Source of the DNA: Aquila chrysaetos chrysaetos
Taxonomy: Eukaryota; Chordata; Aves; Accipitriformes; Accipitridae
Assembly: GCF_900496995.4 (NCBI RefSeq)
Contig: NW_024470325.1
Coordinates: forward strand, 591,012 to 655,011
DNA: 64,000 nucleotides
Direction of reading: 5' to 3'
Shown: one piece after another, positions 13,079 to 44,149 of the stretch
Numbering within the stretch: the stretch's first letter is position 1
Layout of the letters: the number at the start of each line of letters is the position of its first letter
Notes under the pieces: generated by a model
The model's input: only the letters and a program-made list of their open reading frames with translations
Told to the model about the DNA's origin: nothing
The model's database searches: none
Translations under genes and position numbers: made by a program

Positions 13079-13365
13079 GTAACTTGTCTTCCCCCTGGGG
13101 CTGGGTATCCCCAGGGCAAGACTGGGACCCACAGCTGGGTGGAAGGGGCTCCTTGCTGGGGTGTGAAACTCCCAGGAGAAGGCACTGGTCTGGTGGTGAG
13201 GGGGGTAGGGAAGGTTGTCATTTACTCATCAGGGTAGAAGCATCTCCATCACTCATCCCTGGGGCCCTCCACCCCCTGCTGCCTTGTGTGATGGGGGTCA
13301 GGAATGGTGCTTTTTCCACCTCACCCAGGCCTGGTGCTGGCCTTTCCATATTCTTGCCCACACAG

Positions 13366-13503
13366 ATTCCCCCCAGGGCCGTCTGAGTGGCAGCGGGAGA
13401 GTCTCAGTGCCCGTCATCATCTGCATCATCCTGGGGGCCCTTCTCTGCCTGCTCCTGGCCCTCCTGGCTGGGCAAGCGCTAAGCACCAGGGCTGGGCGCA
13501 GAG
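13366..13503 (+). CDS. WC1/CD163-like receptor, transmembrane exon (copy A)
   Basis: A 138-nt exon (acceptor CCCACACAG, donor GTTGGT at 13504, phase 1 both ends). It encodes a short juxtamembrane stretch (DSPQGRLSGSGR), one strongly hydrophobic helix beginning SVPVIICIILG, and a basic stop-transfer end (STRAGRR). Copy B at 43893-44030 is nearly identical, differing by at least one Leu/Val change before the helix. In copy A the sequence matching B breaks about 105 bases after this exon, and the tail exons found in B are absent. The encoded protein may therefore be a membrane receptor without its normal signalling tail, unless other tail exons exist that I did not recognise. Confidence 0.8.
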
Positions 13504-13724
13504 GTTGGTCTTTCCACAGCAGTCCCAGGGGAAGATAGATACCTCCTGGAAGGGCTGCAGGGTGTCAGTGAGGGGCACAGGCAGAGCTGGGGGGATGAGA
13601 CCCCCCAGGAGCTGGTGCTTGCCTGCCCAAGTGTCAGGGCATCTTCCTGAGGCTGATCAGGAGGAGCAGAGAACAAAGTCATGGAGGTGGGGAGATGGGC
13701 ATGTCTCAGGGACAGCAGGCTTGG

Positions 13725-16009
13725 GGTCAGGCTGTGGAGCAGCGAGAGCCCATGATCCCTGGGGAATAAACCTGCTGACAGAGACATTTCCATCCTGCTG
13801 GCCACAGGCAGTTTCTGGTCAAAATGGCTCTCTGATAGGCCCTGTGATGCACCGCAGTGGGAGCACCCATTTCCTCGCCCTCGGGTTTCCCAGCTGCTCT
13901 TTGCCCCAGGCAGGGCCTGGGCCATGCTGGTCCCACAGTGCAGAGGCCATGACAGAGCTGCCGTGTCAGGGTAAGCCCTGGGCTGTGGCCCCACAGAAGT
14001 GAGCCCTGAGGTGGCCGCAGTGCCCTGAACACCCCAGCCAGCCCCAGGGGGAAACGTGGCCCATGGATTACCTCCCACCATGGTTAGGAGGCAGCTCTGC
14101 TCCCCACTGCCCCAGCACAGGGTGCAGAGCCGCTTTCTGGGACACACGGGCTGGGATTCCCTCTCCTCATGCTCTGCCAGGAGCCCAGTCTCCATGGGCT
14201 GCTCCTGCTGCCTTGGGCCCTCGCAGACCCTGAGCACTCTTGTCAAGGCACTGAGCTGCCATCTTCCTGAGCAGAGGCTGTAAGGCCCCACGGCAGCCCT
14301 GGGACCCCCTCCTCCTGCTCTCCTCCAGCCCCCACCCCTGCCCTCCTGCTGCCTCACCAGGGATGTCCGTTCGGATTTGTGTCAGGGCGGTACTTGTATG
14401 CAGGTACAAGAGGGATGGGAGCAGGGGGGATGGGGGCACCTTTTCCCTCAGCACTGTGGGAGGGCCGAGGGGATGGAGAAAGGATCCCCAGGAGATGTGT
14501 GCTGCAGCCAAAAGCCATGGTGCTGCAGCCAAAAGCCGTGGTGCAGCAGCCAAAAGCCGTGGTGCAGCCCCTGGCCTGGAGAAGGGCTCATCTGGGAGGA
14601 TGCTCACGTGGGCACGTTTCCATGGCAGAGGAGATTTTGTGTCCCTCCCCTAAAAGAGGCACTGGAGGGCAGAGAAACCTTTATGCAGAAACCAGGCAGG
14701 GAGAAGGATTTGACTCCTGGGCAGGACCTGGTGCTCAAAGTGCTCTCCCTGGTCCTGCTGGTGGGTCTCCACACCCTTCTGGCACTTCCCCAAAAAGCTC
14801 CTCTGCTGCGGGCTGGAAGGTACCTTGGCTGTCTGTCCCAGCGTTCCCTTTGGGGAGTTGCTGGAGGTCAGTACTGCTGCAAGCAGCAGGATCTGGCCCT
14901 AGAGGAGAAGTGGGGAGGAGGCGGCTGTCACCAACATCCTCTCCCACTTCAGCATTGCCCCATTCCCTGCTGGGAGATCCTCCACCCCTGGAGTGACCCT
15001 GGGGGGATCTGGGAGAAGCCAAGACTCACAGATTCCTCTGCCCTATACCCTAGAGCCTTCCTGCTGGCAGACCCCATGGGAGAGCAGTGTTCCCAGGGTG
15101 AGACCCCCACGGTGATGGGTGACAGACATGGGCACTGCAAACACAGCCTCCATCCCCTGCAAAACTCCCATGGGGGCAAGCTCCAGCCGTGCATCTCAGA
15201 GAAGTAAGGTATAAAAGTGAAGTAAAGAAGGGAGGAGTGTTATCTTCTGAACACAGGATGGTGGGGCTATGGACAGTATGGACACTGACGTGCAGACTCA
15301 AGGTGCTCCAAGTGGGGACTGGGGAGAGGAACCCAGCGCCTGTCCTGTGCCACCTCGCTGCCAGCTCTGCCCTCCCACAGGGGTAATATTTCTCCCTTAT
15401 TCTGGCACCTGGCAGACATTTTCCTCTTCCTCCTGGGGGAGATGAGCCACAGGCCTGTGTGTGCTTGAGGGGGCAGCACGCCTGAGGAGGAAGAGCCTGT
15501 TTCATGGCATCTGGGGACCTGAACAGTCTGGCCCTGCAGGCTGGGTCCATTCTCTGCAGCAAAGCAAGATTGTCACTGTAGCCCACATCCGTGGTTGTTC
15601 CTGCAGCTCCCGAGGACCTGCCTGAGGGGGGGTCACAGTGAGACCCCAAGCCTCAGCACTGCAGCCCCCATGCTGGGCAGAGCTTGGCTGTTTAAAGCCC
15701 ATAGGAGAGCAGCCTTATTTCTCTGAGTTTTGGCTCACCAGGGTGCTTGGCACCCTGCAGTGAAAGTCCATGTCGCATGCCCCATTTTGGTTGTGGGTGT
15801 TATTGCCAGGGGAGCAACCAAGGCACCATCTTCTGGCCCTCACTGCCTGTGCATGGCTGTGGACAGACCTCTGACTCCTTGATCCTACCAACACAGTAGT
15901 TACGGAGTAGTGACAGAGTCACCAAACACCCCAGGAACAAGAGGTGGGCACCGGCCCCACCAGTCCCACGTCTGCAGGGCTGTGCCTGACCTCAGCAGAT
16001 CCAGGTTCC
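13725..16009 (+). other. segment present in copy A only
   Basis: About 2.3 kb of GC-rich sequence with no counterpart in copy B, where the two flanks are joined directly. No tyrosine-motif tail exon (YDD or YEE type), SRCR domain or transposon ORF was recognised. It contains a 21-bp triplicate at 14499-14561. Confidence 0.5.
14499..14561 (+). repeat. three 21-bp tandem units
   Basis: Three near-identical units containing GCAGCCAAAAGCC. In one frame they encode repeated AAAKS-G segments, but there is no sign of a real gene around them. Confidence 0.75.
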
Positions 16010-16587
16010 CTGAGCTGAGGCTCTGCTCAAGCCAGTGGTGATGGTGGAAGAAAAACTCCAGCTGGGAGTCCCATAGCCCTGCCCATGCTTGTCCAGCCCA
16101 GACAGCCTTACCTGCTGGCACAGAGTGCTTCCCATGTGGTATGGGATCTCCACCTGGGGACAGAACAATCTCAGCCCCTTAGCCCTGGAAAGCCACCAGG
16201 GCAGTGTGGCTCTGGTCCCAAAGGACACCTGGGCTGGACCAGCACCCTCACACCACATCTCCCAGTGCAGCCAGAAAGGATTCCTTAGCGTGCTGCTTCT
16301 GTGTCTCCCCTCCCTGAGGTCTCCTCACAGGCACACTTTACTGCCAAGCATTGTCCTTGGGTGGGGTGGCCCTAGGATGCAGGGCAGTGACCTGGGCGCA
16401 CGTCCAGCACAGCTGCCTGCTTCTCCTCCAAGAGGGGACTCAGCAGAGGCAGCACACACAGCCCTCCCCACCTGACAGCCAAGCCCTGGGTGGGCAGGGC
16501 AGGTGCACAGGGCCTGGGGAGGAGCAGTGCCTGAGCTCCAGCCCACACCTGCCTGAGGCTGGGCAGTCAGGGCAAAAGCACCACCCC

Positions 16588-16659
16588 TGGAGATGCCAGG
16601 GATTGAACCCAGGACCTCCCACATGCGAAGCAGGTGCTCTTCCACTGAGCTCCATCCCC
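16588..16659 (-). tRNA. tRNA-Ala (CGC), copy A
   Basis: A 72-nt cloverleaf on the minus strand with no intron. The acceptor GGGGATG pairs with CATCTCC (one G-U) plus discriminator A, the D-arm is GCTC/GAGC, the anticodon loop is TTCGCAT (anticodon CGC), and the T-loop is TTCAATC. The anticodon and T stems contain G-U pairs, and the D-loop reads GGAA where GGTA is usual, so expression is not certain. An identical-looking copy is at 40811-40882. Confidence 0.85.
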
Positions 16660-17039
16660 TTGATGCCTGCCAGCAGGAGACACGCTTTTCTCCCGTGATG
16701 TGTCTATGACAAGGGGAGCAGTCTGTGCCCCGTTGAGAATGACAAAGAGGAGAGAGACAGGGTCTTTGCAGAGACCCCACAAAGGAGAGATGCCAAGTGC
16801 TGTGGAGCAGGGAAGGAGGGATGGCAGGAGACCACCCCAAAGAAGCACTGAATGGAGAGTCCTGTCCAGGGGAAGGCTGGGGGCTTGCAGTGCAAGAGGA
16901 AGGCTCATTCTAACCTGCAGATCTGCAGCTCCAGTGCACGGGCAGTGCTCTGGCAAGAGGTGAAGGAGCAAGGGGGGCCAGGGCAGGCTGGGAGAAGGCA
17001 GGCAGGCAGTCTCTGCAAAAACCTACAGGAGCAAATCAT

Positions 17040-17112
17040 TGCTGAAGCCCGGGGTTGATCCAGGGACCTTTAGATCTTCAGTCTAACGCTCTCCCAGCTG
17101 AGCTACTTCAGC
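17040..17112 (-). tRNA. tRNA-Phe (GAA), copy A, T-loop altered
   Basis: A 73-nt minus-strand gene matching tRNA-Phe closely. The acceptor GCTGAAG pairs with CTTCAGC plus A, the D-arm is intact, and the anticodon loop is CTGAAGA (GAA). The T-loop reads GATCAAC where copy B at 40361-40433 keeps GTTCAAC. The lost T is part of the B-box promoter and the T-loop fold, so this copy may be weakened or inactive. It lies 380 bp from the tRNA-Ala gene on the same strand. Confidence 0.85.
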
Positions 17113-17479
17113 CCTGCCCCAGCAGCCCCTGTCCCAGTTCCACCCCTGCCAGGCCACAGGCTGACACACACATGAAGAGAGCTCCTTGGGGACATTCCCA
17201 GGGAAAAGCTGTGCCCAGCGCCGGGCAGAGCGGACCTGGCCTCTCCCTGCCTCCATGGCTAGGTAGACTCCAGGTGTGGGGTGGGTGCCAGCTTACAGTG
17301 GGAGTGCCAAGATATGTGTCAGGCCTCAGTTACAAAGGTGAGTGGTGAAGGCAAGTGGGCAGGCCAGGCACACGCAGCAGCCAAAGCTGGAGGTGGAAGA
17401 AGGGTGGGGTTGGTGGAAGACCTCTCTCATAGGGAAGAGAGGGCCTGGGGGAGGCAGAGCTTTTGCTGGTGCTTTTGCT

Positions 17480-18375
17480 TCCTTCTTGCATGAGCAAGAG
17501 TGTTCTGTTCAATGTTTGGAGACCATATTTAGGGGGAGAGAAGGCTTGAAAACCTCTAAGGACTGGGACTGCACAACCTCTCAGGGCAACCTCTTCCAGT
17601 GCGTAAGTGACCTTATGGTTACGACCTCATGGACCTCATCTCCTCCCTGAACATTCTTTCAAATTTTGCCCCTTGCCTCTCTTTTTCCCACCGTGCACCA
17701 CGACGAAGAGCCTGGCTCTGTTTTCTTAACTGCCTGATAGGTACTGAAATGAACCTGTGAGGTTTCCCGAAGCCTTCTCATCTCCATACTGAGCAGTGTT
17801 CCCTCAGCCTTTCCTCAGGTGGAAAGTTCTCCAGCCCTGTGCACACCCCCACACACCTGACTGTATTGGTGCCCCTTCACTGAACTTGCTCCAGTTGATC
17901 AATGTCTTTCCTGTACTGGGAGCAGGAGGCCCCAAACTCAGTGCAGTGCTGTGCATGTGGTCTAGCAAGCAGTGAATGGAGGGGGAGAATCCCTGCCCCT
18001 CATCTCCTGGCCATGCTTCTGTTCATACAGGCAGGCTGCTCTTGGCCTTCTTGGCTGCAGGGGCTCACCGCTGACTCATGGGCAGCTTGTTGTCCACCAT
18101 GACCCCCAGGGCCTTTTCTGCTCAGCTGCACCCTACCCAGGGCAGTTGCCCAGGGTTAGGCCACCCCAGGGGCAGGACTTGGCATTTCTTCTCTCTGAAA
18201 TCTAGTAGGGATTTTTGGCCCTCTCTGCCAACCTGCTGAGTTTCCTCCAGAAAGCAGCACTCCAGTGTATAGACTGGTCCGCACCTCAGGTTTGTGTCAT
18301 CTGAAAACTCTGTCAGCTCCTCCGGGACACTGATAGCATCATTAAGCCCCAGAAGACACCCTGATGCATCCAATC
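17480..18375 (-). mobile_element. CR1 LINE fragment
   Basis: Reverse-oriented CR1. Its plus-strand landmarks are acaacctctcagggcaacctc, the ggtttcccgaagccttctcatctcc-like stretch (17762-17784), a cctgtactgggagcaggaggcc stretch, and the leader-proximal text near 18240 about gctgagtttcctccagaaagc, all in diverged form. It begins where duplicated block A ends. Confidence 0.85.
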
Positions 18376-18448
18376 AGTCTTTTACTCTTTGCCCATCTGT
18401 CAAGACTGTAGCTTCCTGGCTTTGATGTAAGAAAACTGTGGGACACTG

Positions 18449-19630
18449 TGTGGTGGGTTGACCTTAGCTGGCGGCCAGATGCCCAGCCAGCCACTCTCTC
18501 ACTCCTCCTCGTCACCAGTACAGAAGGAGAAAAAAGGAAAAACAATGCTGAATTGCTTCTTATGAAATCAGGGACATCACTTCCCAATTAGTCATGAGCA
18601 AAAGAGACTCAACAGGAGGAAAATTAACTTATTTTATTACCATTTCAAATAAGGTTGGTGTCGTGGTTTCAGCCCAGCTGGTAACAAAGGACCATGCAGC
18701 CGCTCGCTCACTCCTCCCAACCACCTCGTGCATTGAGATAAGGACAATTTCCTGGGACAACACAAAAAGAGAAGTTACAACCAGAACAACAACGGTACTA
18801 ATAAAAGAATATACAGAACGAGTGACGCACAGTGCGACTGCTCACCACCCGGATCCCGACGCTCCACCACTTCCCCCACCAAAAGTCGAGAGACCCCCCA
18901 CCCCCAGTCTGCTTCCCATTTATATAATGAGCATGATGTCACATGGTATGGAATAGCTCCTTGGCTAGTTCATGTCAGCTGTCCCAGCTGTGCCCCCTCC
19001 CAGGTTCCTGTGAAAATTAACTCTATCCCAGCTGCACCCTGGACAGTTGGATAGTGAGAAGAAAAGATAAATACTACAACAGCACCTCCCCTTTCCCCCT
19101 TTTCCCAGGCTCAGCTTCATTCCTTCATTGCTGACCACTCTAACTCCTTTCCCTGTGAGTGGTAAAAGGAGGAATGGGGACTACAGTCAGTTCCTAACAG
19201 GTCGCCTCTGCTGCTCCCCCCTTACACTTTTCCTGTGGCATCCTTCCCACAGGCTACAGTTCTTTCAGGAAATATCCAACTTCTCTGGCATTTGATCCTC
19301 CACAGGCTGCAGGGGAATCTCTTCTGCATCATATGCAGCTCCTCCTCCCCCTCTTCTTCACCGATCCTGCTGTTTAAAGGAATTTTCCTCACGCTCTTTT
19401 TTTTCCTTGCTCCTGTTCCAGTCTGGCATTTGTGCCCTTTTTTTAAATACACTTTCACAGAGGTGCCACCAGCTTTGCTGATGTGTTAGCTTTTGCCAGC
19501 AGTAGGTCTGTTGCAGAGCTGGCTGGACTTGGCTGTGTCCGGCATGGGATAACTCATTGTCTCTTCTCCCAGGGGCTCCTGCTGCCCATCTGCTACCAAA
19601 AACATGGACACAGACACCAATATAGAGCAA
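18449..19630 (-). mobile_element. LTR family 3, interrupted by a nested LTR
   Basis: It starts with TGTGGTGGGTTGACC (the LTR end in reverse orientation), as at 23867 and, diverged, in the copy at 63345-63877. It is split by the family-1 LTR at 18659-19045 and resumes with GGATAGTGAGAAG. It then passes through the ggctgcaggggaatctc segment shared with 22415-22432. The right edge is approximate. Confidence 0.7.
18659..19045 (-). mobile_element. solo LTR, diverged family 1, nested
   Basis: It begins TGTCGTGGTTTCAGCCC and ends CCCTGGACA, with the internal marker atgatgtcacatggtatgg. The five bases GTTGG occur on both sides (18654-18658 and 19046-19050), a perfect target-site duplication. This shows a clean retroviral insertion into the older family-3 LTR. 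Confidence 0.85.
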
Positions 19631-20200
19631 GAAGCTTGGCCTTGCTAAATGTCATCCTCTGCTCTTCTACTGTCAAGCAATGCAAACTACTTGTTGAGGG
19701 AGTATAGAGAGAAACAGAGAAGGCCTTGACACTGTGCAAGCACTGCTTAGCAATAGCTTATTCCATAGCTTTTCCATCATGCTCAGGACCCACATTGACT
19801 GATACACCTGAGCGTACACATTCAATATATACACAAGCACCCCATTCTTATATGTTGTTGCATTTCTACACCCTACTCAAACCTTTCCTTTCTCGTCTCT
19901 TGGTCCCAAAATCCCCTTACCAACACTTACAACTTGTACTACATACTTAAATCATCTTTACTTCCAACAGTCATGTTTATACACCCTCATTAACCACTGT
20001 CCCCTGTTCCTTGACATGCACTGACATTATTCACCCATTGCAGCCCCACCCCCTCCAACCCCCCGCAAGTGTCCTTATACCAGCCAATGACTTGGGCCGC
20101 ATCTGTTGCTTTAAAGGGTAAAGAAAATAAACTCCCTTGTCTTCCACCTTATCCTCAGATGTCAGAGGGGCTGGGGTGGCTAGGTTTCATTTCTGAGTGA
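19631..20200. other. no gene recognised, LTR-flanked filler
   Basis: AT-richer unique-looking sequence between two LTR elements. No conserved frame was seen. Confidence 0.4.
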
Positions 20201-20665
20201 TGTCCAATTCAACGCTGTAAGTCCGGTCGCGTTCAATACGTTGAACTATCATGATGACAGATGCACTTAATAGCGTGCTGCACTCTCAGATTAGCCCTGT
20301 TCAATGCACTAGGATAACCAGACTTGGGGAGTTTGGTTATGTTAAAGAACTATCATGACTAGATTAATGAGCAGCACAGTTTATTAAAGCAGCAGTACAG
20401 GTTCTTTTGGATCGCCAGTGATAAACACACTGCCTGCAAAGCATGTGCGAATAACAATACAGTCGACTACAAGCGCATTAAATTATGAAAGAATAAAGAG
20501 CTCCAAAGAATTCTAAGTTTCCTGGGGAAGCACTTGGTACAGCCGAGTGTTCAAATCTCACCCAATAGGCATCCCTATGTGGGGGAAGAAGGTTTCAGCC
20601 CATCGACTGATCCCAGAAGTCAGAGATGTCCTCCCGACTTGTCTATGATGGTATCTTCCCTAACA
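20201..20665 (-). mobile_element. LTR family 2 (3' LTR of the chimeric provirus)
   Basis: About 465 bp, TG...CA on the minus strand, preceded by a purine tract at 20666-20682. It shares a gatttgaacactcggctgtacc-like segment and the gcaggcagtgtgtttatcac region with the LTR at 60826-61312. Confidence 0.75.
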
Positions 20666-21219
20666 TTCCTCCTCTCTTAAGTCCTTTTACAGTCTCTTAT
20701 TTTTTAGGTGGCGCTTGAGTGACTCTAGCCGTACATGCCTTTACTTTGCTTGGTATAAAGTGAGCATCTACGTGACATACTTTTAGCACTAGCTTCCCTA
20801 GCCAAACAGTAACATCTTGCCACAGTGTGTCAGCCCAGATGGGTTTGCCTCTGTGCTGCCAGTTACTCTGCTTCCATTGCTGTAACCACCTCCACAGGGC
20901 AGTCGTCACCATCCATGAGTCAGGATAGAGATAGAGCACTGGCCACATCTCTCTTTCAGCAATGTCTAACACTAGCTGGATGGCTTTTACCTCTGCTAAT
21001 TGACTTGATTCACCTCCTTCAGCAGTTTCTGTGACTTGTCGTATAGGACTCCATACAGCAGGTGAGGTGATACATAACAGAACTTTAAAAACGAGAGTAA
21101 CAACTCTAAGAACACATAAATCAACATAGTAACCAGTGACTATTAGACCAATACAATGAATGCTTGTAGCAAATTTTTCACAAGCTCTGCTCAGGTCTGT
21201 CATTATCTCAACCCTTTGT

Positions 21220-21237
21220 GCCTCACGTCGGGCGCCA
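21220..21237 (-). other. primer binding site, tRNA-Lys type
   Basis: The minus-strand sequence begins TGGCGCCCGACGTGAGG and differs at about two of 18 positions from the complement of the tRNA-Lys(CTT) 3' end. It lies 8 bases inside the LTR at 21246-21809, the normal position. Confidence 0.7.
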
Positions 21238-21245
21238 AAAAGGAC

Positions 21246-21809
21246 TGTCGTGGTTTCACCCCGGCCAGAAACTAAGCACCACAGAGCCGCTCACGCACTC
21301 ACCCCCAGTGGGATGGGGGAGAGAATCGGACCAAAAAAGTAAAACTTGTGGGTGGAGATAAGAACAGTTTAATAGAACAGAAAGGAAGAAACTAATAATG
21401 ATAATAATAACACTAATAAAATGACAATAGTAATAGTAAAAGGATTAGAATATACAAGTGATGCAGAATGCAATTACTCACCACCCGCCGATCGACACCC
21501 AGTTAGTCCCCAAGAGAACATCCCCCCCAGTTTATGTACTAGATGTGACGTCACATGGTATGGAATACCCTGTTGGCCACTTTGGGTCAGCTGCCCTGGC
21601 TGTGTGCCCTCCCAAATTCTTTTGCCCCTCCAGCCTTCTCGCTGGCTGGGCATGAGAAGCTGAAAAATCCTTGACTTGAGACTAAACATTACTTAGCAAC
21701 AGCTGAAAACATCAGTGTTATCAACATTCTTCTCATACTGAACTCAAAACATAGCACTGCACCAGCTACTAGGAAGAAAATTACCTCTATCCCAGATGAA
21801 ACCAGGACA
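21246..21809 (-). mobile_element. LTR family 1 (5' LTR of the chimeric provirus)
   Basis: 564 bp. It starts TGTCGTGGTTTCACCCC and ends AACCAGGACA on the plus strand, and carries the family marker acgtcacatggtatggaat. Confidence 0.85.
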
Positions 21810-21892
21810 GGGAGACACATGGCTTGGGTATGTACTTGTGTTGTCACTCTGGGCTGAAGAGCTGATAGGCCAGGACCAGGTAATCCAATCAC

Positions 21893-22735: not shown

Positions 22736-22751
22736 TTGCCACACAAAGCCA

Positions 22752-23866
22752 ATATACAGGCCTACCCTGGAGCATCAGGTAGGGACACCAGACCTACCCT
22801 ACAGGGTCACCTAGGTAGGGTGGGTCTACCCCCGCACGCCCGTAGTGGGCAGCAGGTGTACCCCAGAGTACCAATAGGGGTACCGCTACTACCCCGGAGC
22901 ATCAAGTACGGATGCCAGGCCTGGCCCAGAGCATCAGGTAGGGAGGCCAGGTGTAGCCCGGAGTGCCAGTAGGGACAGCAGGTGTACCACGGGGTACCAG
23001 TAGGGGTACCAGTAGTACCCTGGAGTACCAGTAAGGGTAACGGTACTACTGCGCAGGATCAGGTAGGGACGCCAGGCCTACCCCGGAAAATCAGGTAGGG
23101 ATAGCAGGCCGACACCAGAGGGTCATGTAGGGAGGGCGGGTCTACCCCGTCCGCGCGGGTAGGGAGGCCAGATCTGCCCACCGGCGCTGGTAGGGAGGCC
23201 TTGCCTACCCCGCCCGCGAGGATAGGGAGGCTAGGTCTACCCCGCCTGCTCGTGTAGGGAGGCGTGGTCTACCCCATCTGTGCTTCTAGGGAGGCCAGGT
23301 CTACCCCGCCCACGCCAACAGGAAGGCCTCGCCTACTCCTTCCTCGCATGTAGGGAGGCCAGGTGTACCCTGCCGTGTGGGTAGGGAGGCCTGGTCTACG
23401 CTGTCCATGCAGGTAGGGATGCCAGGCGTACCCCAGAGCATCATATAGGAATACCAGGCCGACACCAGAGGGTCAGGTAAGGAGGGTGGGTTTAACTCCA
23501 CACCACCGTAGGGACAGCAGGTGTACCCCAGTATACCAGTAGGGGTACCTGTACTACCCCGGAGTACCAGTAGGGGTACTGGAACTACCACGCAGCATAA
23601 GGTAGGGATGCCAGTCCGACTCCAGAGGTTCAGGTAGGGAGGGAAGGTCTACCCCCGCGCTCCTGTAGGGACAGCAGGTGTACCGCGGAGTACCAGTAGG
23701 GGTACCAGTACTACCCCGGAGGATGAGGTAGGGACGCCAGGCCTACCCCGGAGCATCAGGTAGGGACGCCAGGCCTACACCAGAGTGTCAGGTAGGTAGG
23801 GCGTGTCTACCGCCGCGTGCCCGTTGTGTACAGCAAGTGTACCCCAGAGTACCAGTAGGGGTACCC
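22752..23866 (+). repeat. GC-rich minisatellite array 1
   Basis: About 1.1 kb of tandem DNA built on short units such as gagtaccagtaggggtacc and gagcatcaggtagggacgcc. A central part (about 23130-23400) is made of a 32-bp unit beginning gggaggccaggtctacccc. The same two unit types make up array 2 at 51277-53830. A family-3 LTR piece lies just left and the end of another begins exactly at 23867. CRISPR is excluded by the eukaryotic context and the absence of unique spacers. Confidence 0.9.
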
Positions 23867-24020
23867 TGTGGTGGGTTGACCCTGGCTGGATGCCAGTTGC
23901 CCACCAAATCCACTCTATCACTCCCTTTTTTCATCTGGACAGGGGGAGAAAATATAACAAAAGGCTCGTGGGTCAACATAAGGACAGTTTAATAAAGTGA
24001 TAGCAAAGGTCGCGCATGTA
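23867..24020 (-). mobile_element. LTR family 3, end fragment
   Basis: It starts TGTGGTGGGTTGACCCTGG directly after the array and matches the start of the element at 18449. Beyond about 24020 the family similarity fades. Confidence 0.6.
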
Positions 24021-24649: not shown

Positions 24650-25229
24650 TGTCCTAGTTTCAGCTGGGATAGAGCTAACTGTCTTCCTAGTAGCTGGTAC
24701 GGTGCTATGTTTTGAGTTCAGTATGTGAAGAATGTTGATAACACTGATGTTTTCAGTTGCTGCTAGTAGTGTTTAGACTAATGTCAAGGATTTTTCAGCT
24801 TCTCATCCCCAGCCAGCGAGAAAGCTGGAGGGGCACAAGAAGTTGGCACAGGACACAGCCAGGGCACCTGACCCAAACTGGCCAACAGGGTATTCCATAC
24901 CGTGTGACGTCCCATCTAGTATAGGAACTGGGAAGTGGGGGCGGGGAATCGCCGCTCGGGGACTACCGGGGTGCCGGTCGGCGGGTGGTGAGCAATTGCA
25001 CTGCGCATCATTTGTACATTTCAATTCTTTCATTATTGCTGTTGTCGTTTTATTAGTGTTATCATTCTCATTATTAGTTTCTTCTTTTCTGTTCTATTAA
25101 AGTGTTCTTATCTCAACCCGTGGGTTTTGTTTCTTTTTCCCGATTTTCTCCCCCATCCCACTGGGTGGGGGGGGGAGTGAGTGAACGGCTGCGTGGTGCT
25201 TAGTTGCTGGCTGGGGTTAAACCACGACA
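24650..25229 (+). mobile_element. solo LTR, family 1, subgroup I
   Basis: 580 bp, TGTCCTAGTTTCAGC to AACCACGACA. Flanks are GCGTG and GTGTG, a target-site duplication with one transition. Diagnostic bases (gagctaac, ggccaacaggg, cccgtggg, gctgcgtgg, ccacgaca) are shared with the 3' LTR of the large ERV (44150-44730) and not with its 5' LTR. Confidence 0.9.
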
Positions 25230-25339
25230 GTGTGCCTCTTCACAGGCAATACAATAAAGATTACTGTGTGATTACTGCTATCCCCTTTGATGTTGGTCAC
25301 CTTAATTTTACACCTTTGAGATCGTAGCAAATGAACCAT

Positions 25340-26990: not shown

Positions 26991-27129
26991 AGCCTGGGCA
27001 AAAGAAATGGGAGATCTGGGGGAGGGAAGAGGGGCTTGACCAACAGACACGAAAGATTTTGAAGAGGTAAAATGGGTTAAGGGGACGTTGCTGTGAAAAC
27101 ACTGACTGTGAAAACATTCCTGTTAAGAC

Positions 27130-30560: not shown

Positions 30561-30569
30561 GTAAAGGGT

Positions 30570-34310: not shown

Positions 34311-34319
34311 TGTGATCCA

Positions 34320-34890: not shown

Positions 34891-35379
34891 ATAAAGGAGA
34901 AAGGTAGGACAGAAAGAAATGAACACCACATAGCCTTGTCCACAAATATTGTGGGATCTCATGGAGGAGACCCAAGCTGGAACAGGGGAGAAGTGTGAGG
35001 AGGAAGGAGCAGCAGAGTTGTTCTGTACCGACTGTTAACCCCTTCTTCAACATCCCCCATGCTCCTCTTGGGTTTGGGATGAGTAGAAGAATTTGGAGCA
35101 AGGGCGTAATATGAGCGTGGGGGAAAGTGTGAGGGCAATGGACTTGAATAATTTTGTCATTGTTTCTCACAATCCAAACCTTTTTTACTTGGCATAAATT
35201 AAATTGGTCTTCCCCAAGTCAACCCTTCTTCTCCTGTGACAGTAATTAGTAAGTGATCTCCCTGTCTTTATCATGACCCAGGAGCTATTCCATCTTATTT
35301 TGTCCCTTTGTCCTTTTGAGTTGGAGGTGTGACTGGGCAGCTGGGTGGGTGTCTGGGTGTTGGGCAAGGCTAACCCACT

Positions 35380-35700
35380 ACAGGACGACCACCTCAGGAC
35401 TGCTGTGTCCAGTGTGGGGCTCACCAGCACAAGGAAGACCCTGACAGACTGGAGAGAGAGTTGCAGAGGCCAGAAGGATGGCTGGGGCCTGGAGCACATT
35501 GTGTACAAGGAGAGGCTGAGAAAGCCGGGGTTAGGAAAAAAGTCCCTTAGAGCCAAACACTGGAGCAAGGACCCAGGCCAGTTGGTGAGATCTCTATCAG
35601 TGGAGATTTTCAAAATCTGTCGAGACAAGCACCTGATGTAGCCGGAGGTGTCTGAGAATGGGCTTGGCTGAGAGTCTGGCTGTGGCAAGAGCTATGGGAC
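35380..35700 (+). mobile_element. CR1 LINE fragment
   Basis: Diverged CR1 with caaggagaggctgagaaagcc and tcagtggagattttcaaaat. Confidence 0.65.
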
Positions 35701-36650
35701 TTGATGTGTAACGAGTGTTGGTAGGAAACTGGTTCCCTTTGTGTTAGTAATGGCAGTAGAGCTGGGTATCCTAGAGACCTGGAGGAAGACAGGGGTGACC
35801 ATGCAGCAAAGATCCTTCCTCAGGGTTGGGGTGTATGGCCACTCACTCTCTGGCTCTTCTGTGTTCATATTATAGGCGATCCCCAACACTGAACTGCATT
35901 TGTCCCTTCTCTGCCCCCACCAGCCCCACGCCCCAGGGCAGCATGACAGTCCTGGCCCTGGAGCTCCTCAGCCAGCTCTTGCATCTCTCCAGCCCCCTTC
36001 CCCTGTGCCAGCTGGGTTCCTGCTGCCTGCCCTGTGATTGCAGAGTCCTCCTTTCCCTGTGAATACCTGGAATTAACGCTTTTGCGTGATTCCGCCTGGG
36101 CAATCTCTCACTTTGTGGAGCTCCGGCCACACCCCAGGCACACGCTGCCCATGGAGATCCCCTGGGATATCCAGGCAGCTACAGATTCCCCTCCTGGAAG
36201 ATGTCTTCTGCCCTGTCACATGTGGGAAAGGACTGGGTTTCTACCTCAGTGACCATTTGTCATCTCCACTGTCACCAGGCACCAACAGGTGAGTCCTAAA
36301 TCCACCCCTCTAGCAGGTCACAAGGTGACAATGAGCTTTTTGCCCTTGAAACCATGGTTCAATAGGCCTGCTGGAGGTGCAGTACCTCGGGCCTGTTCCT
36401 GACACGAGGTTTGGAAAAACAGCCCTACCATCAGGCAGTGCCCAGGGAAGATCCCTTTTTATTACAGAGATGCTATGAGGGAGTCACCTTGGACCCAGTG
36501 CTACAAAGTCGCATTTTTATATGGTCCTCCAGGTGAGACAGAAGAGGTTCCTGCTTCACATGAAGTACGGGAAGTCCAAGTATTGGTCTATGAACATGAA
36601 ACCCCAAAGAGCAGTAACAACAACAATAATAAAAGAAAGCATGGGCCTAG
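35701..36650. other. no gene recognised
   Basis: No domain was identified. Open frames on both strands are short and lack family motifs. Confidence 0.4.
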
Positions 36651-36658
36651 TATGGGAG

Positions 36659-36893
36659 TCACTTGTGGAAAAAGACTGGAAGGTTACTGGTATTGAAAAA
36701 TGTCCATGAAATCACTTTCCTCAGGGCATTTTTGAGCTCCCTGTTCCTCATGCTATAGATGAGAGGGTTCACAACTGGAGGCACCAGCGAGTACAGCACG
36801 GCCACCACCAGATCCAGGGATGGGGAGCAGATGCAGGGGGGCTTCAGATAGCCAATCGTGCCAGGGCTGACATACATGGAGACCACTCAGCCC
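36659..36893 (-). pseudogene. olfactory receptor 3' fragment, OR14-like
   Basis: A minus-strand frame of about 75 codons covers only TM6-TM7 and the C-terminus: VSMYVS, GYLKPP, DLVVAVLYSLVPP and NPLIYSMRNRELK, ending at a normal-looking stop. It resembles the two intact OR genes. OR similarity ends abruptly at about 36893, so the first 75% of the gene is missing. The remaining frame is open, which suggests truncation by rearrangement rather than slow decay. Confidence 0.88.
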
Positions 36894-36899
36894 ACAAGT

Positions 36900-38480
36900 C
36901 AGCAGCCCTAGCCAAGAGAACAAGGACCTCAGTTGTGGGTCCCAGCCCTAACAAAGCCCTTGGCTTTCCCCACCACAGGCTGTCCTATACTGTCCTATGT
37001 CAGTGATCATTTCTCTGCAGACTTTAACTCTCCCCCCTGCTTCCCCAACTCGCTCTGACCCCATGATATCCCAAGGTTTACTGATAACTCTCTGTCCTCA
37101 CTGTTCTTCAAACATAAAGCTGTAGTTTTCTGAGGGTTAGACAATGGCTCTGAGTTCCCCAAAACCCATCTGGCTTCTTTCAAAGCCTTGTTTATGTTCC
37201 TCTAGCCCCCAAGATGTGCTCCTCTAGCCCCAGGCTCGCTTGAATTCTTACGTGCACGGCTCTCTCCCTGCACGACCACGTCTCTCACAAACCCTTCCCT
37301 CTTCCCCCGCAGTGATGAAACTTCACCCCAGGAGGTCTGTGCATCCTCCACACTCATAGATGTTTCCTGAGGTCCATCCAAGTATGGGAAGTGAAGCAGG
37401 AAAAGAGCAAGGTCAGCTCATTTGGCATGATAGCCACCCTCAGCAGCGGGCCTTCTCCATTTTCTAGGCATGCACATATCATAGAAAAATCTCTTTCACC
37501 CCTGACTTGCAGAAGAGGGGTCTTCCTTCCTGACATCTTCCCAGGACACACCTCCTCCTCTTCCCCATCCACAGACAACCACTGCTTTCCATTTCTGGCC
37601 TCAGAGAGGGTTTCAGGATTTGCTAAAGCCATCAGCCACCTCCTTCTTTCTCACTGACACCCCTCGACCCTCTCTCTGAGCCCTACACGTGGCCAATCAA
37701 TCAGTGCTGCTCAGAGCTGCTCGCTCTTCAGAAGAGGCCTTGAGATTCCTGCATATTCCTGGTGCTTATTAACTAGCTTCCTGGCTCTCTCCAGAGCTCA
37801 TGGCAAACGTTGCTGTCTACAACAGGGCCTTTATGACCATCTTTTATGAAATCATTGTCTTTTTAAGATCTTCTCTGCAGAAAGAGTAGCCACAGAAAAG
37901 CACCAAACACACCAGACAGAGTCTGAGTGAAGTGCCAGTAAGAAGCAGCTGAGCAACACCCAAGGCTCTGGCTTCCTGGCAAGGAGTCTCTCCTGTTTGT
38001 CACCTTTTCTCATGAAAGGAGCAGGAAAACTGTCCATCCCATGGAGCTCTGCAGAAGGAAGATGGAGCTGTACATAGCGTGAGGCGATACAAGTGGGATC
38101 AGCAGGTAGAGAAGACTCCTGTAGGGAAGGCATTTTGAGGGAGCACCCTGACTTCACCCAGATAAAAAAGAGACCAGGCAGTGTGCTGACATGATGGGGA
38201 GAAGTGTCCTGGGTAAAAGAGTGTGGATGAGAGAAGGTGGGAGAGATTTGGTTTGCAGAGATTTGAGGTAGTACTTTCCGCGCCTGAGCAGCCTGAGGTT
38301 TGGAGCCGAGGAAAAATATAGAAGCTCTCAAGGACGTTTTGGAATTAGTGGAACTATTAGTAATAGCAGTAACAGGACAGTGCTGCAAGGGAACTCTTTT
38401 GTATTCTCGATGATGAACTAAAGCTATTTAATTTTTCTTTTTACATGACAAAAATAGCTATGAGTTCTCAGGCATTAGCC
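36900..38480. other. no gene recognised
   Basis: No domain, exon or repeat family was identified. Confidence 0.4.
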
Positions 38481-38489
38481 TCTGGTCTA

Positions 38490-39440
38490 CAATTCTTAGA
38501 ACAAGTGTCCATGATGGCACCGCTTGGCAGCTGCTTCATGCCCCTGTCAGTGCCCTGTCCCTGTGCTGGCCCAGCCCCACTGACCATACATGGACGCACG
38601 GCCCCATTGTGCAGGCACAGCATGGGAAAGGGGAGAGTCAGGGGTGGGGACCTTCCCCCCATTGTGATCCTAAAGATGGCCTTCAGATCACAGTTCCCGC
38701 ATGACCTTCCTACTTTTGCAGCTTCCCCAGCACCTGACCCCTGCCCTGCTGCAGCCTTGTCCCATGTGGAGCTTTGCAGAAAGCTCTGCTCCAGGGTCTG
38801 CCAGCGTCTTGGGAAGGAGAGAAGCTGGGTAGGGCTGTCTGTTTTCCCAAACCAGCCTTAGGACCAGCGGGAAGGTGGAGGTGGCCTCACAGCAAATCAC
38901 ACCTGTAAACCTGGGGTGACCAGCAAGCGCTGGAAATGGCCAATGAGAGATGCTGGGGGTGACAAAGGCCCTGAGTCACCTTCGCAGTCTATCCACACTG
39001 CCAACAACACAGACCAGACTCCTCCTCTCCCCTACACCTGCATGTCTTCCATGCTTTCCACAAGCCCTGGCTCTGAATGACAAAACCCTGGTGTGAGTCC
39101 TCGTGCTGCAGGGTCACACACTGCCAACTGTACACTGATGTTTTTTCTCCCCTGGGCACTTTCCAGCCCAGCACTGCTCCCCCTAAACTCTCCCCACTTC
39201 CCTTGACCTCCCTCCACCTCCTCTGCCCTCTTCCCAGCACAGCCCAGTCTGGCATGGCCCCACAGCAGTGCCCACCACAGGGTGCGGCAGAGCTCTGGGC
39301 ACTCACCCCACAGCCCCAGACCCTCTGAAGGGCACAGCAGCTCCTCGGGGGTGGAGAGGGCTGAGCCCCAGGGCTGGGGGGCATCTGTGGCACAAGGCCT
39401 GAGGACATCCCCTTGTGTGATGGAAATGCTGCTATGGAGG
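38490..39440 (-). repeat. duplicated block B' (inverted copy of 5461-6400)
   Basis: The reverse complement matches block A'. Similarity stops sharply at 39440, six bases before the LTR at 39447. The frames differ between copies. Confidence 0.75.
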
Positions 39441-39446
39441 CTGACG

Positions 39447-40000
39447 TGCAGAAAACTGACTCTACAATCAGTGAGGTTATAAAGTAAGTATGTTCATTCA
39501 GTGCTGGGCAGCACGGGGGGTAGTCCCACCAAAGTCGTGCACGCCTGACTCGGCAGTTTGCTTGAAATTTATAAAATCATGTGTTACATATTCACAATAC
39601 GCCTATACATATGCAGTATCCCCGCTGCATATTAAAATGAGTTCCGAGAGGTCATTTCCATAGTCTCCTCTCAACTGTGCTTGCACAGTGCCTCTTTATG
39701 GTGGTCGTCGCAGAGATGAAGATAGATGACTCCGTCACCGCTAGTAACCTCTTTTCTTGCGCAGGCTCAGAGGTTTCTTGGTATTCACCCAAGTTACAAG
39801 ACCAGTCTTGGCTGGCTCTTGGGGCCAGCTCCTGCTTCTTATCAGGAACTGTCTCTGCCTCATTGGCTGGTTCTTGGTACCAGCTCTTCTTATCAAGGCC
39901 TGTCTCTACCTCAGCTAATTTCAGCAATGTAAGCGCTAAACATCATCTTTCATCCCCCTTTATTATGTCTACTGAGATTCTTTTGACTCCCCTTGTCTCA
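39447..40000 (-). mobile_element. solo LTR (family 5) at a duplication junction
   Basis: On the minus strand it begins TGAGACAAGG and ends GTCAGTTTTCTGCA. Before the end it has an AATGAA poly(A)-like signal and a cgtgctgcccagcactgaat U5-like region typical of avian class II LTRs. Flanks are CTGACG and GCACCA, with no target-site duplication. It lies between block B' (edge 39440) and block B (edge 40001). Confidence 0.7.
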
Positions 40001-40360
40001 GCACCAGCAAAAGCTCTGCCTCCCCTGGGCCCTCTCTCCCCTATGAGAGAGGTCTTCCACCAACCCCACCCTCCTTCCACCTCCAGCTTTGGCTGCTGCG
40101 TGTGCCTGGCCTGCCCGCTTGCCTTCACCACTCACCTTTGTAACTGAGGCCCGACACATATCTTGGCACTCCCACTGTAAGCTGGCACCCACCCCACACC
40201 TGGAGTCTACCTGGCCATGGAGGCAGGCAGAGGACAGGTCCCCTCTGCCTGGTGCTGGGCACAGCTTTTCCCTGGGAATGTCCCCCAGGAGCTCTCTTCA
40301 TGTGTGTGTCAGCCTGTGGCCTGGCAGGGGTGGAACTGGGACAAGGGCTGCTGGGGCAGG

Positions 40361-40433
40361 GCTGAAGTAGCTCAGCTGGGAGAGCGTTAGACTGAAGATC
40401 TAAAGGTCCCTGGTTCAACCCCGGGCTTCAGCA
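40361..40433 (+). tRNA. tRNA-Phe (GAA), copy B
   Basis: 73 nt. The acceptor GCTGAAG pairs with CTTCAGC plus A, the D-arm is GCTC/GAGC, the anticodon is GAA, and the T-loop GTTCAAC is normal. It is better preserved than copy A because the TTC of the T-loop/B box is intact. It lies 377 bp upstream of a tRNA-Ala gene on the same strand. Confidence 0.92.
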
Positions 40434-40810
40434 ATGATTTGCTCCTGTAGATTTTTGCAGAGACTGCCTGGCTACTTCCAGCCTGCCCTGGCCCTCCTTG
40501 CTCCTTCACCTCTTGCCAGAGCACTGCCCGTGCACTGGAGCTGCAGATCTGCAGGTTAGAATGAGCCTTCCTCTTGCACTGCAAGCCCCCAGCCTTCCCC
40601 TGGACAGGACTCTCCATTCAGTGCTTCTTTGGGGTGGTCTCCTGCCATCCCTCCTTCCCTGCTCCACAGCACTTGGCATCTCTCCTTTGTGGGGTCTCTG
40701 CAAAGGACCCTGTCTCTCTCCTCTTTGTCATTCTCAACGGGGCACAGACTGCTCCCCTTGTCATAGACACATCACGGGAGAAGAGTGTGTCTCCTGCTGG
40801 CAGGCATCAA

Positions 40811-40882
40811 GGGGATGGAGCTCAGTGGAAGAGCACCTGCTTCGCATGTGGGAGGTCCTGGGTTCAATCCCTGGCATCTCCA
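40811..40882 (+). tRNA. tRNA-Ala (CGC), copy B
   Basis: 72 nt, same sequence features as 16588-16659: acceptor GGGGATG, anticodon loop TTCGCAT, T-loop TTCAATC. Several stem G-U pairs leave its activity open. Confidence 0.87.
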
Positions 40883-41707
40883 GGGGTGGTGCTTTTGCCC
40901 TGACTGCCCAGCCTCAGGCAGGTGTGGGCTGGAGCTCAGGCACTGCTCCTCTCCAGGCCCTGTGCGCCTGCCCTGCCCACCCAGGGCTTGGCTGTGAGGT
41001 GGGGAGGGCTGTGTGTGCTGCCTCTGCTGAGTCCCCTCTTGGAGGAGAAGCAGGCAGCTGTGCTGGACCTGAGCCCAGGTCACTGCCCTGCATCCTAGGC
41101 CCACCCCACCCAAGGACAATGCTTGGCAGCAGAGTGTGCCTGTGAGGAGACCTCAGGGAGGGCATAGACAGCAGCAGCACGCTCAGGAATCCTTTCTGGC
41201 TGCACTGGGAGATGTGGTGTGAGGGTGCTGGTCCAGCCCAGGTGTCCTTTGGGACCAGAGCGACACTGCTAAGGGGCTGAGATTGTTGTGTCTCCACTCC
41301 AGGCGGAGATCCCATACCACATGGGAAGCACTCTGTGCCAGCAGGTAAGGCTGTCTGGCCTGGACGAGCATGGGCAGGGCTGTGGGACTCCCAGCTGGAG
41401 TTTTCTCTCCACTATCCTTCCACCATCGCCACTGGCTTGAGCAGAGCCTCAGCTCAGGGAACCTGCCTGCTGTCCCAGAGGCATGCCCATTTCCCCACCT
41501 CCATGACTTTGTTCTCTGCTCCTCCTGATCAGCCTCAGGAAGATGCCCTGACACTTGGGCAGGCAAGCACCAGCTCCGGGTCAAAGCTGAACACAGCTCT
41601 TCTATTACGAACAAAGATGATGCACAGCGTAAAAATGGGAATACAAATAGAGGAAATTCCAGGCGGTTTCTGTTGCCCATGGGCCAAGGGACATGGTTCC
41701 CTGGTGC

Positions 41708-41954
41708 TCACGGCTCTCCCAGCTCCACAGACCTCTTCTCCCTCCTGGCTGCACAGCAGGGATGGGCTCTCATGGCCTGGGGCTCTGGGACTGTTGTGCA
41801 CAGAGCTCCGGTTGTCACAGCCGCTGTGTCCTCAGGGGGATGTGCCAGAGACACCTCTTCAGCATCATCATAGCCCAGGCTCCCCAGGGACAGGAGCCAC
41901 ATGTCTCTTCAGCTCCAGGGACCCCAGCACTTCTCCAGGAGCGCAGGCTGGTCC
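41708..41954 (-). pseudogene. WC1/CD163-like receptor, distal tail exon (frame-broken?)
   Basis: Minus strand. An acceptor (TTGCAG) at 41955-41960 precedes a frame GTSLRSWRSAGVPGAEETCG. The family motif GYDDAEEVSLAHPPED appears shortly after, but in another frame, so a one-base change (or a different acceptor) is needed to join them. The YDDAEEV motif is typical of WC1 and CD163L1 cytoplasmic tails. The 3' end is uncertain; the motif frame closes at 41708. Confidence 0.5.
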
Positions 41955-42183
41955 CTGCAAGCAGCAAGGCAGGACAATGCAGTTCGGCCCATGGGGTCTC
42001 TACATCATCTTCCTCCCTGCTCCTCACCACATTCAGCTCCTTCTCCTACCCCTAGTCCCTCCAAGGAAGACTCCCAGGACAGGTATCCCCCTTCCCAGGA
42101 AGCTGGGGTCTCAGGACAGCAGTGACTTGGGTGGCACCAGGGATGGCACCCCAGGAACCAGCAGTGCTAAATTTCCCTCTCAC

Positions 42184-42336
42184 CTCCGGGTGCATCCCTG
42201 GGCTCTGCTCCCTCCTCTGGCTCCCTGAGCATTTCCCTCTCTCCCTGCCCAGGGGCAACATCCTCCACGGGATCAGAAACTTCCCTGGCATCATCATAAC
42301 CACCTGCTGGGTCACCTCCAGGTGGGACAAGAACAT
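42184..42336 (-). CDS. WC1/CD163-like receptor, tail exon with YDDA motif
   Basis: A 153-nt minus-strand exon (acceptor CTCTTTTCAG, donor GTGAGA, phase 1 both ends). It encodes DVLVPPGGDPAGGYDDAREV and then an acidic, Pro/Glu-rich stretch. The YDDA-EV motif matches the intracellular tyrosine motif of WC1/CD163-family tails, where phosphorylation or endocytosis signals reside. It follows the exon at 42544-42627 in frame. There is no counterpart in copy A. Confidence 0.75.
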
Positions 42337-42543
42337 CTGAAAAGAGAGCGGAGCTGTTGACAGTGAGAAGATACGTCCTGCAGAGCAGAGGGAAGATGCG
42401 CAGGGACACAGGGCTGAGACACTGGTGTTGGCAGCACCACAGGAGACCCCCCCATGTCCTCCCCATCTCCAGCGGTGACACTGAGTGACACCTCTTTCCA
42501 TTACTTGTCTTCAGCGAGATCAACTCCTTCTTGCCTCTGGTAC

Positions 42544-42627
42544 CTGGCGCTGATCCCAGACCATCCTCCTCCTCGCTGACCCCCGGGTAGGGCTGCAGCT
42601 GGGTAAGGGACTCCTCTGAATAGGAGC
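42544..42627 (-). CDS. WC1/CD163-like receptor, acidic tail exon
   Basis: An 84-nt minus-strand exon between TCTCTGCAG and GTACCA, phase 1 at both ends. It encodes 28 residues beginning GSYSEESLTQLQPYPG and ending in a Glu-rich run. The composition and phase fit a cytoplasmic tail exon. Support is splice sites, phase and context. Confidence 0.65.
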
Positions 42628-43062
42628 CTGCAGAGATGCACAGTGGCTATTGCAAAGTGAGCCCCACTGACCTGGCTCGTGGCCAGTGCTGCTGGGGAAG
42701 GGGGACCCACAGAGCTGGGGCTGCATGGGGAGGAGGGCTGGGAAATCACCCTGCCTCCCTGGGGCAAACCCTGTCTCAAAGGTGCTCCCAGAGCTGCCCT
42801 AGGACAGCCCCTTCCCTCACTCCACGGGTGTCACATGGGGAGCAGGGGCAGGAAGAGAGGGGCTGTCCCGCTGGGACAGGCAAAGCTGTTTGTTTGGGAG
42901 AAAGATCCCCTTCCAGGCCCAGGACCTGGATGGTCTCCCCACAGACCACGTGGCCCCAGTGTCACAAGGACCATGGGCTGGGGGGCTTCAGGGAATCAGC
43001 CCGGGGTTGGGGCCAGGGGAAAGGGTCCTGCACATGTGCCTCCAGGGAGGACCCAAACCCAC

Positions 43063-43158
43063 CTGAGCGACCAAACCTCGCCTGCTTCTCCCACACTGGG
43101 CTGTAACCGATCTCCTCGTACAGGGCCTCAGGGAAGGGCTCCTGAGCACTCCTGGAGC
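43063..43158 (-). CDS. WC1/CD163-like receptor, tail exon with YEEI/YSPV
   Basis: A 96-nt minus-strand exon (acceptor CTGTCCCCAG, donor GTGGGT, phase 1). It encodes SAQEPFPEALYEEIGYSPV followed by a basic end. The two tyrosines (YEEI and YSPV) are only five residues apart, so they are not a canonical ITAM but could be SH2-binding or sorting motifs. It splices in frame from the transmembrane exon at 43893-44030. Confidence 0.75.
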
Positions 43159-43892
43159 CTGGGGACAGAGGCAGGGCTGGCAGAGGGACAGGCAGAGGGG
43201 CAATGGGATCACACTGCGCTGCCCCAAACCTGTTTCTTGGGCCAGGCCAGGACTGGCCCGACGGCACAGCCCCACTGCACTGTCCAGGCACAGCTGCCAC
43301 GTCCCCAGTGAGGGCAACATCGCTGTGGAGATTATCTGGGGCAGCGTCTCCCTCGCATCATCCCTTCGGAGACAGCGCTCATGCCCCTCTGGCCCCTGGG
43401 TCATGCCCCCCTTGTCTGACCCTGGAGCAGCTCCCATGTTTTCTCCACCTGGAGCTTTCCCCTATCTGCCCCACGGGTCTAGGGTAGCCAGGGGGTGGGC
43501 AGGGCTGGGCAGAGGAGACGGCCTGGGGGCCTGACACCACGGAGGTGGACCCTGCTGCCCTGCACTCCTCCCATCATCTTCCTTGTCCCAGAGACCGCCC
43601 CCCAGCACTACCCAGAGCACTGCCAGTCTTGGCCATCTCCCTTCTGCTCACATCTCCCCCAGCCCCACTCTGCCATTTCTCTCCTCACCCCATCGCTACC
43701 TCCCCCCGCCTCTGGGCTCTCTCCACCCCTTGCTGCTGGTGCCCCACAGCCAGGCACTCAATGGGGTGGTACATGGGACTGCTGGCAGCACACGGTCTCA
43801 TCCCCCCAGCTCTGCCTGTGCCCCTCACTGACACCCTGCAGCCCTTCCAGGAGGTATCTATCTCCCCCTGGGAGCGCAGTGGAAAGACCAAC

Positions 43893-44030
43893 CTCTGCGC
43901 CCAGCCCTGGTGCTTAGTGCTTGCCCAGCCAGGAGGGCCAGGAGCAGGCAGAGAAGGGCCCCCAGGATGATGCAGATGATGACGGGCACTGAGACTCTCC
44001 CGCTGCCACTCACACGGCCCTGGGGGGAAT
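43893..44030 (-). CDS. WC1/CD163-like receptor, transmembrane exon (copy B)
   Basis: A 138-nt minus-strand exon nearly identical to 13366-13503: DSPQGRVSGSGR, then the SVPVIICIILG hydrophobic helix, ending STRAGRR. The acceptor and donor are conserved. Upstream on the minus strand, the duplicated sequence stops 120 bases later at the provirus (44150), so no SRCR exon or start accompanies it. As it stands this copy is a 5'-truncated gene holding the membrane span and tail only. Confidence 0.8.
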
Positions 44031-44149
44031 CTGTGTGGGCAAGAATATGGAAAGGCCAGCACCAGGCCTGGGTGAGGTGGAAAAAGCACCATTCCTGACC
44101 CCCATCACACAAGGCAGCAGGGGGGTGGAGGGCCACATGGATGAGCGAT

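What the first reader, a model, noticed from the sequence alone, without database searches (positions are those of the whole stretch)
13240..44149. Two complementary halves of one scavenger receptor gene in opposite orientation
Copy A (+) has three SRCR exons, a linker and a transmembrane exon but no tail exons. Copy B (-) has an almost identical transmembrane exon and three to four in-frame tail exons (YEEI, YDDA motifs) but no SRCR exon. The breakpoints lie just after the membrane exon in A (about 13608) and just before it in B (44149). Each locus keeps exactly what the other lost. This is either a real partial inverted duplication, possibly giving a decoy-like tailless receptor from A, or a fingerprint of misassembly of one gene.
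Basis: partly seen in the sequence, partly recalled or inferred. Interest (0 to 1): 0.8.

Follow-up and report, generated by a model that had tools for sequence, protein, structure and literature searches.

The report
Two eroded inverted scavenger-receptor gene copies
Two damaged, back-to-front copies of a bird immune-receptor gene sit about 30 kilobases apart, and they look like an ordinary old duplication worn down by separate deletions and a retroviral element rather than one gene cut in half.

Summary
A(+) has three SRCR exons, a linker and a membrane exon; B(-) has the membrane exon plus tail exons. But both also share 13248-13602/44149-43794, 13605-13720/41580-41465 and 16002-17473/41465-40000, each 2.5-3.4% diverged, the last block carrying tRNA-Ala and tRNA-Phe in both. 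This is an inverted duplication, not one gene split in two. A lacks tail exons T1-T4 (2.2-kb gap), the rest of SRCR4 and SRCR5-7. B lacks a different 2.3 kb, which A keeps and which holds a candidate alternative 3' exon. B's "breakpoint" is a retroviral LTR edge; that provirus (44150-51276) has unmatched flanks and LTRs of different lineages, so its upstream join is a recombination or an assembly join. SRCR4's end, SRCR5-7 and a signal exon were found in neither copy, so "each keeps exactly what the other lost" fails. Family: WC1/CD163c-like receptors beside olfactory receptors, probably golden eagle. A tailless decoy from A is possible but weakly supported. Most likely ordinary gain and loss in a receptor cluster.

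The parts
9362..9676 (+). A: SRCR exon 1
   Evidence: PF00530 E 1.1e-37; donor gtaagg
11136..11444 (+). A: SRCR exon 2
   Evidence: PF00530 E 7.9e-27
11673..11987 (+). A: SRCR exon 3
   Evidence: PF00530 E 1.4e-28
12562..12674 (+). A: truncated SRCR4 exon; leaves the family after VLDDQW and meets a stop
   Evidence: 81% to P0001 and 89% to P0028 up to the break; stop seen
13043..13078 (+). A: linker exon
   Evidence: matches ATPRTAASPPRA of P0168
13366..13503 (+). A: membrane exon
   Evidence: 2 differences in 138 bases to B
13602..13605 (+). A: scar where B's 43793-41581 (tail exons) is missing
   Evidence: GACC occurs at both edges
13910..13970 (+). A: candidate alternative 3' exon, absent from B
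   Evidence: 68-94% over 15-21 aa to P0157, P0174, P0138, P0142, P0205, 5 of 238 proteins
14022..14084 (+). A: match to the predicted C-terminus of flamingo P0101
   Evidence: 81% over 21 aa, E 1.2e-5; 1 of 238
13721..16001 (+). Block in A, missing from B (2281 bases)
16002..17473 (+). Shared 3' flank in A
   Evidence: 97.0% to 41465-40000 over 1449 aligned sites, 5 gaps of 40 bases in all
16588..16659 (-). tRNA-Ala in A's flank
17040..17112 (-). tRNA-Phe in A's flank
43893..44030 (-). B: membrane exon
43063..43158 (-). B: tail exon T1 (YEEI)
42544..42627 (-). B: tail exon T2
42184..42336 (-). B: tail exon T3 (YDDA); 94% to P0168
41700..41954 (-). B: last tail exon T4, out of frame against orthologues (downstream end approximate)
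41465..41580 (-). B: shared 3' flank, first piece; scar at 41465
40000..41465 (-). B: shared 3' flank, second piece
40361..40433 (+). tRNA-Phe in B's flank
40811..40882 (+). tRNA-Ala in B's flank
44150..51276 (-). Decayed provirus just upstream of B's membrane exon; flanks unmatched, LTRs not sisters

Best explanation
A and B are two paralogous remnants of a WC1/CD163c-like receptor gene in an avian olfactory-receptor/SRCR cluster. A segment holding the membrane exon, the tail exons and the 3' flank with a tRNA-Ala/tRNA-Phe pair was duplicated in inverted orientation (shown: three colinear blocks at about 3% divergence). Afterwards A lost T1-T4 in a 2.2-kb deletion and B lost a separate 2.3 kb of 3' flank (shown as differences; the direction of loss is inferred from relatives). 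A also lost the rest of SRCR4 and SRCR5-7 (inferred from orthologues). What lay upstream of B's membrane exon is cut off by an LTR element that either recombined with another copy after insertion or was mis-joined (inferred). Most likely neither copy makes a working receptor: A has no signal exon found in the window and a broken SRCR4; B has no ectodomain and an out-of-frame last tail exon.
For: Colinear inverted blocks, 2.5, 3.4 and 3.0% different. Same tRNA pair in both flanks. B's tail exons match the family tail: of 238 proteins fetched by two searches 116 match the membrane exon, 113 of those also T1, and none of the 116 lacks all of T1-T4 (the second search was seeded with membrane exon plus tail, so the set favours tails). 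Golden eagle P0168 has signal, seven SRCR domains, linker, membrane segment and tail, so A and B are both incomplete. A's SRCR4 breaks off after VLDDQW; probes for SRCR5-7 and the signal found no match of their own. 44150 is the end of an LTR; provirus flanks caggt and atcgc do not match, while LTR 56988-57569 has gatgg on both sides and LTR 24650-25230 has gcgtg/gtgtg, 4 of 5. Of 10 informative LTR sites 8 group the 3' LTR with LTR 24650 and the 5' LTR with LTR 56988, 1 groups the provirus's own two LTRs and 1 the third way; bootstrap 0.98.
Against: No reads, transcripts or second assembly could be examined. The direction of the losses rests on protein predictions from other birds, some flagged low quality. 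The signal exon may lie outside the window or be too diverged for the ungapped scan. B's frame disruption could be residual sequencing error. Gene conversion could also have mixed the LTR lineages.
Confidence: 0.8

Rival explanations
1. Assembly artefact: two divergent haplotypes, or two distant loci, were joined in inverted order through repeats (LTRs, 31/32-base satellite), so the arrangement is not real although each copy is.
For: The join at 44150 lies at an LTR edge without matched flanks, and the one at about 39442-40000 at an LTR-like stretch without matched flanks by eye. The provirus's LTRs are not sisters. Satellite arrays lie at 22853-23865 and 51277-53829.
Against: No N in 64 kb. 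If the source is bAquChr1.4, as inferred, it was built from 46-fold long reads of N50 19 kb with optical maps (PMC8499043, passages), enough to span a 7-kb element. About 3% divergence and different gaps are more than expected of two haplotypes (inference).
Confidence: 0.15
2. A is an expressed tailless or short-tail receptor: SRCR1-3, linker and membrane exon spliced past the SRCR4 fragment, ending in the alternative exon at about 13910, acting as a decoy or a non-signalling binder.
For: SRCR1-3, linker and membrane exon have compatible phases (worked out by hand). Five of 238 fetched relatives carry a match to the alternative exon. Short- and long-tail forms of mammalian CD163A are described in PMC2906472 (passages).
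Against: No signal exon found; the broken SRCR4 ends in a stop if included; none of the 116 membrane-exon relatives lacks all of T1-T4, in a set that favours tails; no transcript data.
Confidence: 0.05
3. One gene physically cut by an inversion whose two ends are A and B.
For: A has ectodomain parts, B has tail parts.
Against: Membrane exon, 3' flank and tRNA pair are present twice with about 3% differences; the end of SRCR4 and SRCR5-7 were found in neither. A simple inversion copies nothing.
Confidence: 0.02

Closest known systems
Golden eagle WC1-like receptor P0168 (978 aa; longest contig listed 1,231,163 bases)
   Same: Linker, membrane exon and tail exons match A and B; T3 94% identical
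   Different: Complete, with signal sequence and SRCR4-7; its model lacks T2
Chicken chromosome 16 olfactory/scavenger receptor region (PMC4988538, and PMC8813856; passages seen)
   Same: WC1/CD163-like SRCR genes together with olfactory receptor genes, the OR14J1 family among them
   Different: Linkage to an MHC was not tested here
WC1/CD163c-like genes of chicken and platypus predicted without membrane or tail parts (PMC2906472, passages)
   Same: Incomplete members of an expanded family
   Different: The authors note those predictions may be incomplete; here the missing parts are seen as gaps in the DNA

Membership tests
WC1/CD163c-like group B SRCR receptor | SRCR domains, one exon each | tested here: met
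   A: three PF00530 exons; B: none found in the window
WC1/CD163c-like group B SRCR receptor | membrane exon followed by tail with tyrosine motifs | tested here: met
   B: T1-T3; A has the membrane exon only, T1-T4 not found
WC1/CD163c-like group B SRCR receptor | signal sequence | tested here: not met
   Best ungapped match to the P0168 signal scores 31 of 121, no plausible exon; so neither copy is filed as a complete receptor gene
WC1/CD163c-like group B SRCR receptor | expression at the cell surface | not testable with these tools
   no expression data held
Inverted segmental duplication | homology extends beyond the gene at similar divergence | tested here: met
Single undisturbed proviral insertion (44150-51276) | short duplicated target flanks | tested here: not met
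   caggt versus atcgc
Single undisturbed proviral insertion (44150-51276) | two LTRs are each other's closest relatives | tested here: not met
   of 10 informative sites 8 against, 1 for, 1 the third way; bootstrap 0.98
Endogenous retrovirus | reverse transcriptase and integrase domains | tested here: met
   RVT_1 E 2.2e-18 and rve E 2.3e-16 on separate pieces

The most novel reading that the evidence does not exclude
Copy A has become a natural tailless WC1-like receptor: three SRCR domains, linker and membrane segment ending in a short alternative exon without tyrosine motifs, kept as a non-signalling competitor of the intact receptor.
Probability: 0.05. Interest if true: 0.5.

Novelty: new member of a known kind. 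Interest (0 to 1): 0.2.

Why it matters
It is a readable case of how a bird WC1-like receptor cluster is remodelled: one inverted duplication, separate gaps in the two copies and a retroviral junction can be told apart. It also warns about annotation of such clusters: predicted models of two relatives (P0157, P0184) run into olfactory receptor sequence.

Tried and rejected
One gene split by inversion: rejected by the duplicated membrane exon, flank and tRNAs. A missed-adapter palindrome or plain double assembly of one sequence: unlikely, because the copies differ at about 3% and their nearest shared edges are 22.5 kb apart. A tail-exon relic at 19342-19286(-) seen (E 3.8) was rejected by eye: similar sequence recurs in LTR-like surroundings near 22.44 kb. 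A possible SRCR relic at 33878-33801(-) (E 0.005) got no hit from the 11 bird proteins at E up to 0.01. A planned SRCR profile scan failed (no domains extracted) and was not repeated. Looking for the missing upstream part of B elsewhere in the window found nothing. The SRCR search of the window's own genome got no answer. Six paper searches were made; that (WC1, exon, pseudogene and two more terms) returned 0 papers. Passages of four papers were seen; the rest were seen as listings only.
Full report
What is there. The window holds no N. On the + strand lie three full SRCR exons (9362-9676, 11136-11444, 11673-11987; Pfam PF00530), a truncated fourth (12562 to about 12674), a linker exon (about 13043-13078) and a membrane exon (13366-13503). 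On the - strand lie a membrane exon (44030-43893) and tail exons T1 to T3 with GT-AG borders, followed by T4 (exon ends adjusted by hand). The membrane exons differ at 2 of 138 bases.

Not two halves. Self-comparison and pairwise alignment (gaps not counted) show three colinear blocks in inverted orientation: 13248-13602 with 44149-43794 (2.5% different), 13605-13720 with 41580-41465 (3.4%), 16002-17473 with 41465-40000 (3.0%). The last block is outside the gene and carries tRNA-Ala and tRNA-Phe in both copies. So the same stretch exists twice; A's lack of T1-T4 is a gap of 2213 bases inside it, while B lacks 2281 bases (13721-16001) that A has. GACC occurs at both edges of the stretch missing from A.

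Which losses. Golden eagle P0168 shows the full plan: signal, seven SRCR domains, linker, membrane segment and a tail holding GYDDAEEVSLAHAPEDT. Against it A lacks the end of SRCR4, SRCR5-7 and T1-T4; B lacks everything upstream, and its T4 carries the conserved motif out of the splice frame (by eye). Probes for SRCR5, 6 and 7 scored only on SRCR1-4, and the signal probe had no plausible match. The sequence that follows A's SRCR4 break is 80% like the C-terminus of a Morphnus prediction, P0028, over 55 residues, where it follows the start of another SRCR domain; so the break probably joins SRCR4 to sequence from further along the gene. In A's private block, 13910-13970 resembles a late exon in 5 of 238 fetched proteins (P0157, P0174, P0138, P0142, P0205), and 14022-14084 the C-terminus of 1 (P0101). 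P0205 joins membrane segment, T1 and this exon in one model, so the ancestor probably had both and each copy lost one. These are predictions, some flagged low quality.

How usual the tail is. Of the 238 proteins (120 listed of 3419 hits; one search listed 120 of 177 and added 118), 116 match the membrane exon, 113 of these also T1, 96 T3 and 69 T4; none lacks all of T1-T4. The second search was seeded with membrane exon plus tail, so the set favours tails.

B's upstream edge. Base 44150 is the outer end of an LTR. A - strand provirus spans 44150-51276, with reverse transcriptase and integrase on separate pieces. Its flanks, caggt and atcgc, do not match, whereas LTR 56988-57569 has gatgg on both sides and LTR 24650-25230 has gcgtg and gtgtg. 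Two LTRs of one insertion should be sisters. Of 10 informative sites among four LTRs, 8 group the 3' LTR with 24650-25230 and the 5' LTR with 56988-57569, 1 groups the provirus's own LTRs and 1 supports the third grouping (bootstrap 0.98, and P 0.003 if the three groupings were equally likely). The provirus is thus probably a composite: recombination between two copies, gene conversion, or a mis-join. Beyond it lie satellite (51277-53829) and an olfactory receptor gene, with no SRCR exon found. What originally lay upstream of B cannot be seen.

Where it is. The window is therefore probably from Aquila chrysaetos chrysaetos (inference). That assembly used 46-fold long reads of N50 19 kb, linked reads, Hi-C and optical maps (PMC8499043, passages). 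Olfactory receptor genes with WC1/CD163-like SRCR genes are described on chicken chromosome 16, linked to MHC-Y (PMC4988538 and PMC8813856, passages). PMC2906472 reports WC1-like genes in chicken, some predicted without membrane or tail parts (passages).

Verdict. An inverted duplication of a WC1-like gene segment, eroded on both sides. Shown: the duplication, the gaps, the LTR edge, the non-sister LTRs. Inferred: direction of loss, recombination at the provirus, loss of function, species. Against this reading: no reads or transcripts were available, compatible exon phases leave A able in principle to make a short receptor, and the join upstream of B remains open to assembly error.

Noticed in passing
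5460-6380(+) and 39441-38506(-): A further shared stretch: the first 300 bases differ by 3.7%, the whole by 12.9%, so divergence jumps inside it, as after partial gene conversion or a nested breakpoint. 7803-8079 and 37245-36967(-) follow in the same order (70%).
   Followed up: partly
39443-39999(-): LTR-like stretch (TG...CA) between B's shared flank and the 39441 block, without matching flanks by eye.
   Followed up: no
3974-4927(+), 58637-59638(+), 36886-36678(-): Two olfactory receptor genes with long open frames and one olfactory receptor fragment; the fragment lies downstream of B on the same strand, and predicted relatives P0157 and P0184 are fused to olfactory receptor sequence.
   Followed up: partly
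22853-23865 and 51277-53829: Two arrays of a 31/32-base GTAGGG...TACCCC-type repeat with higher-order periods of 157 and 188-189 bases.
   Followed up: no
33878-33801(-): Weak SRCR-like stretch (E 0.005), possibly a relic of a third copy; no hit.
   Followed up: partly
15552-15400(-): Opposite-strand match to the predicted C-terminus of flamingo P0124 (E 8e-6), suggesting a local inversion or a dubious gene model.
   Followed up: no
48495-50351(-): 618-codon open stretch inside the provirus with no Pfam match and internal 27- and 60-base repeats.
   Followed up: no
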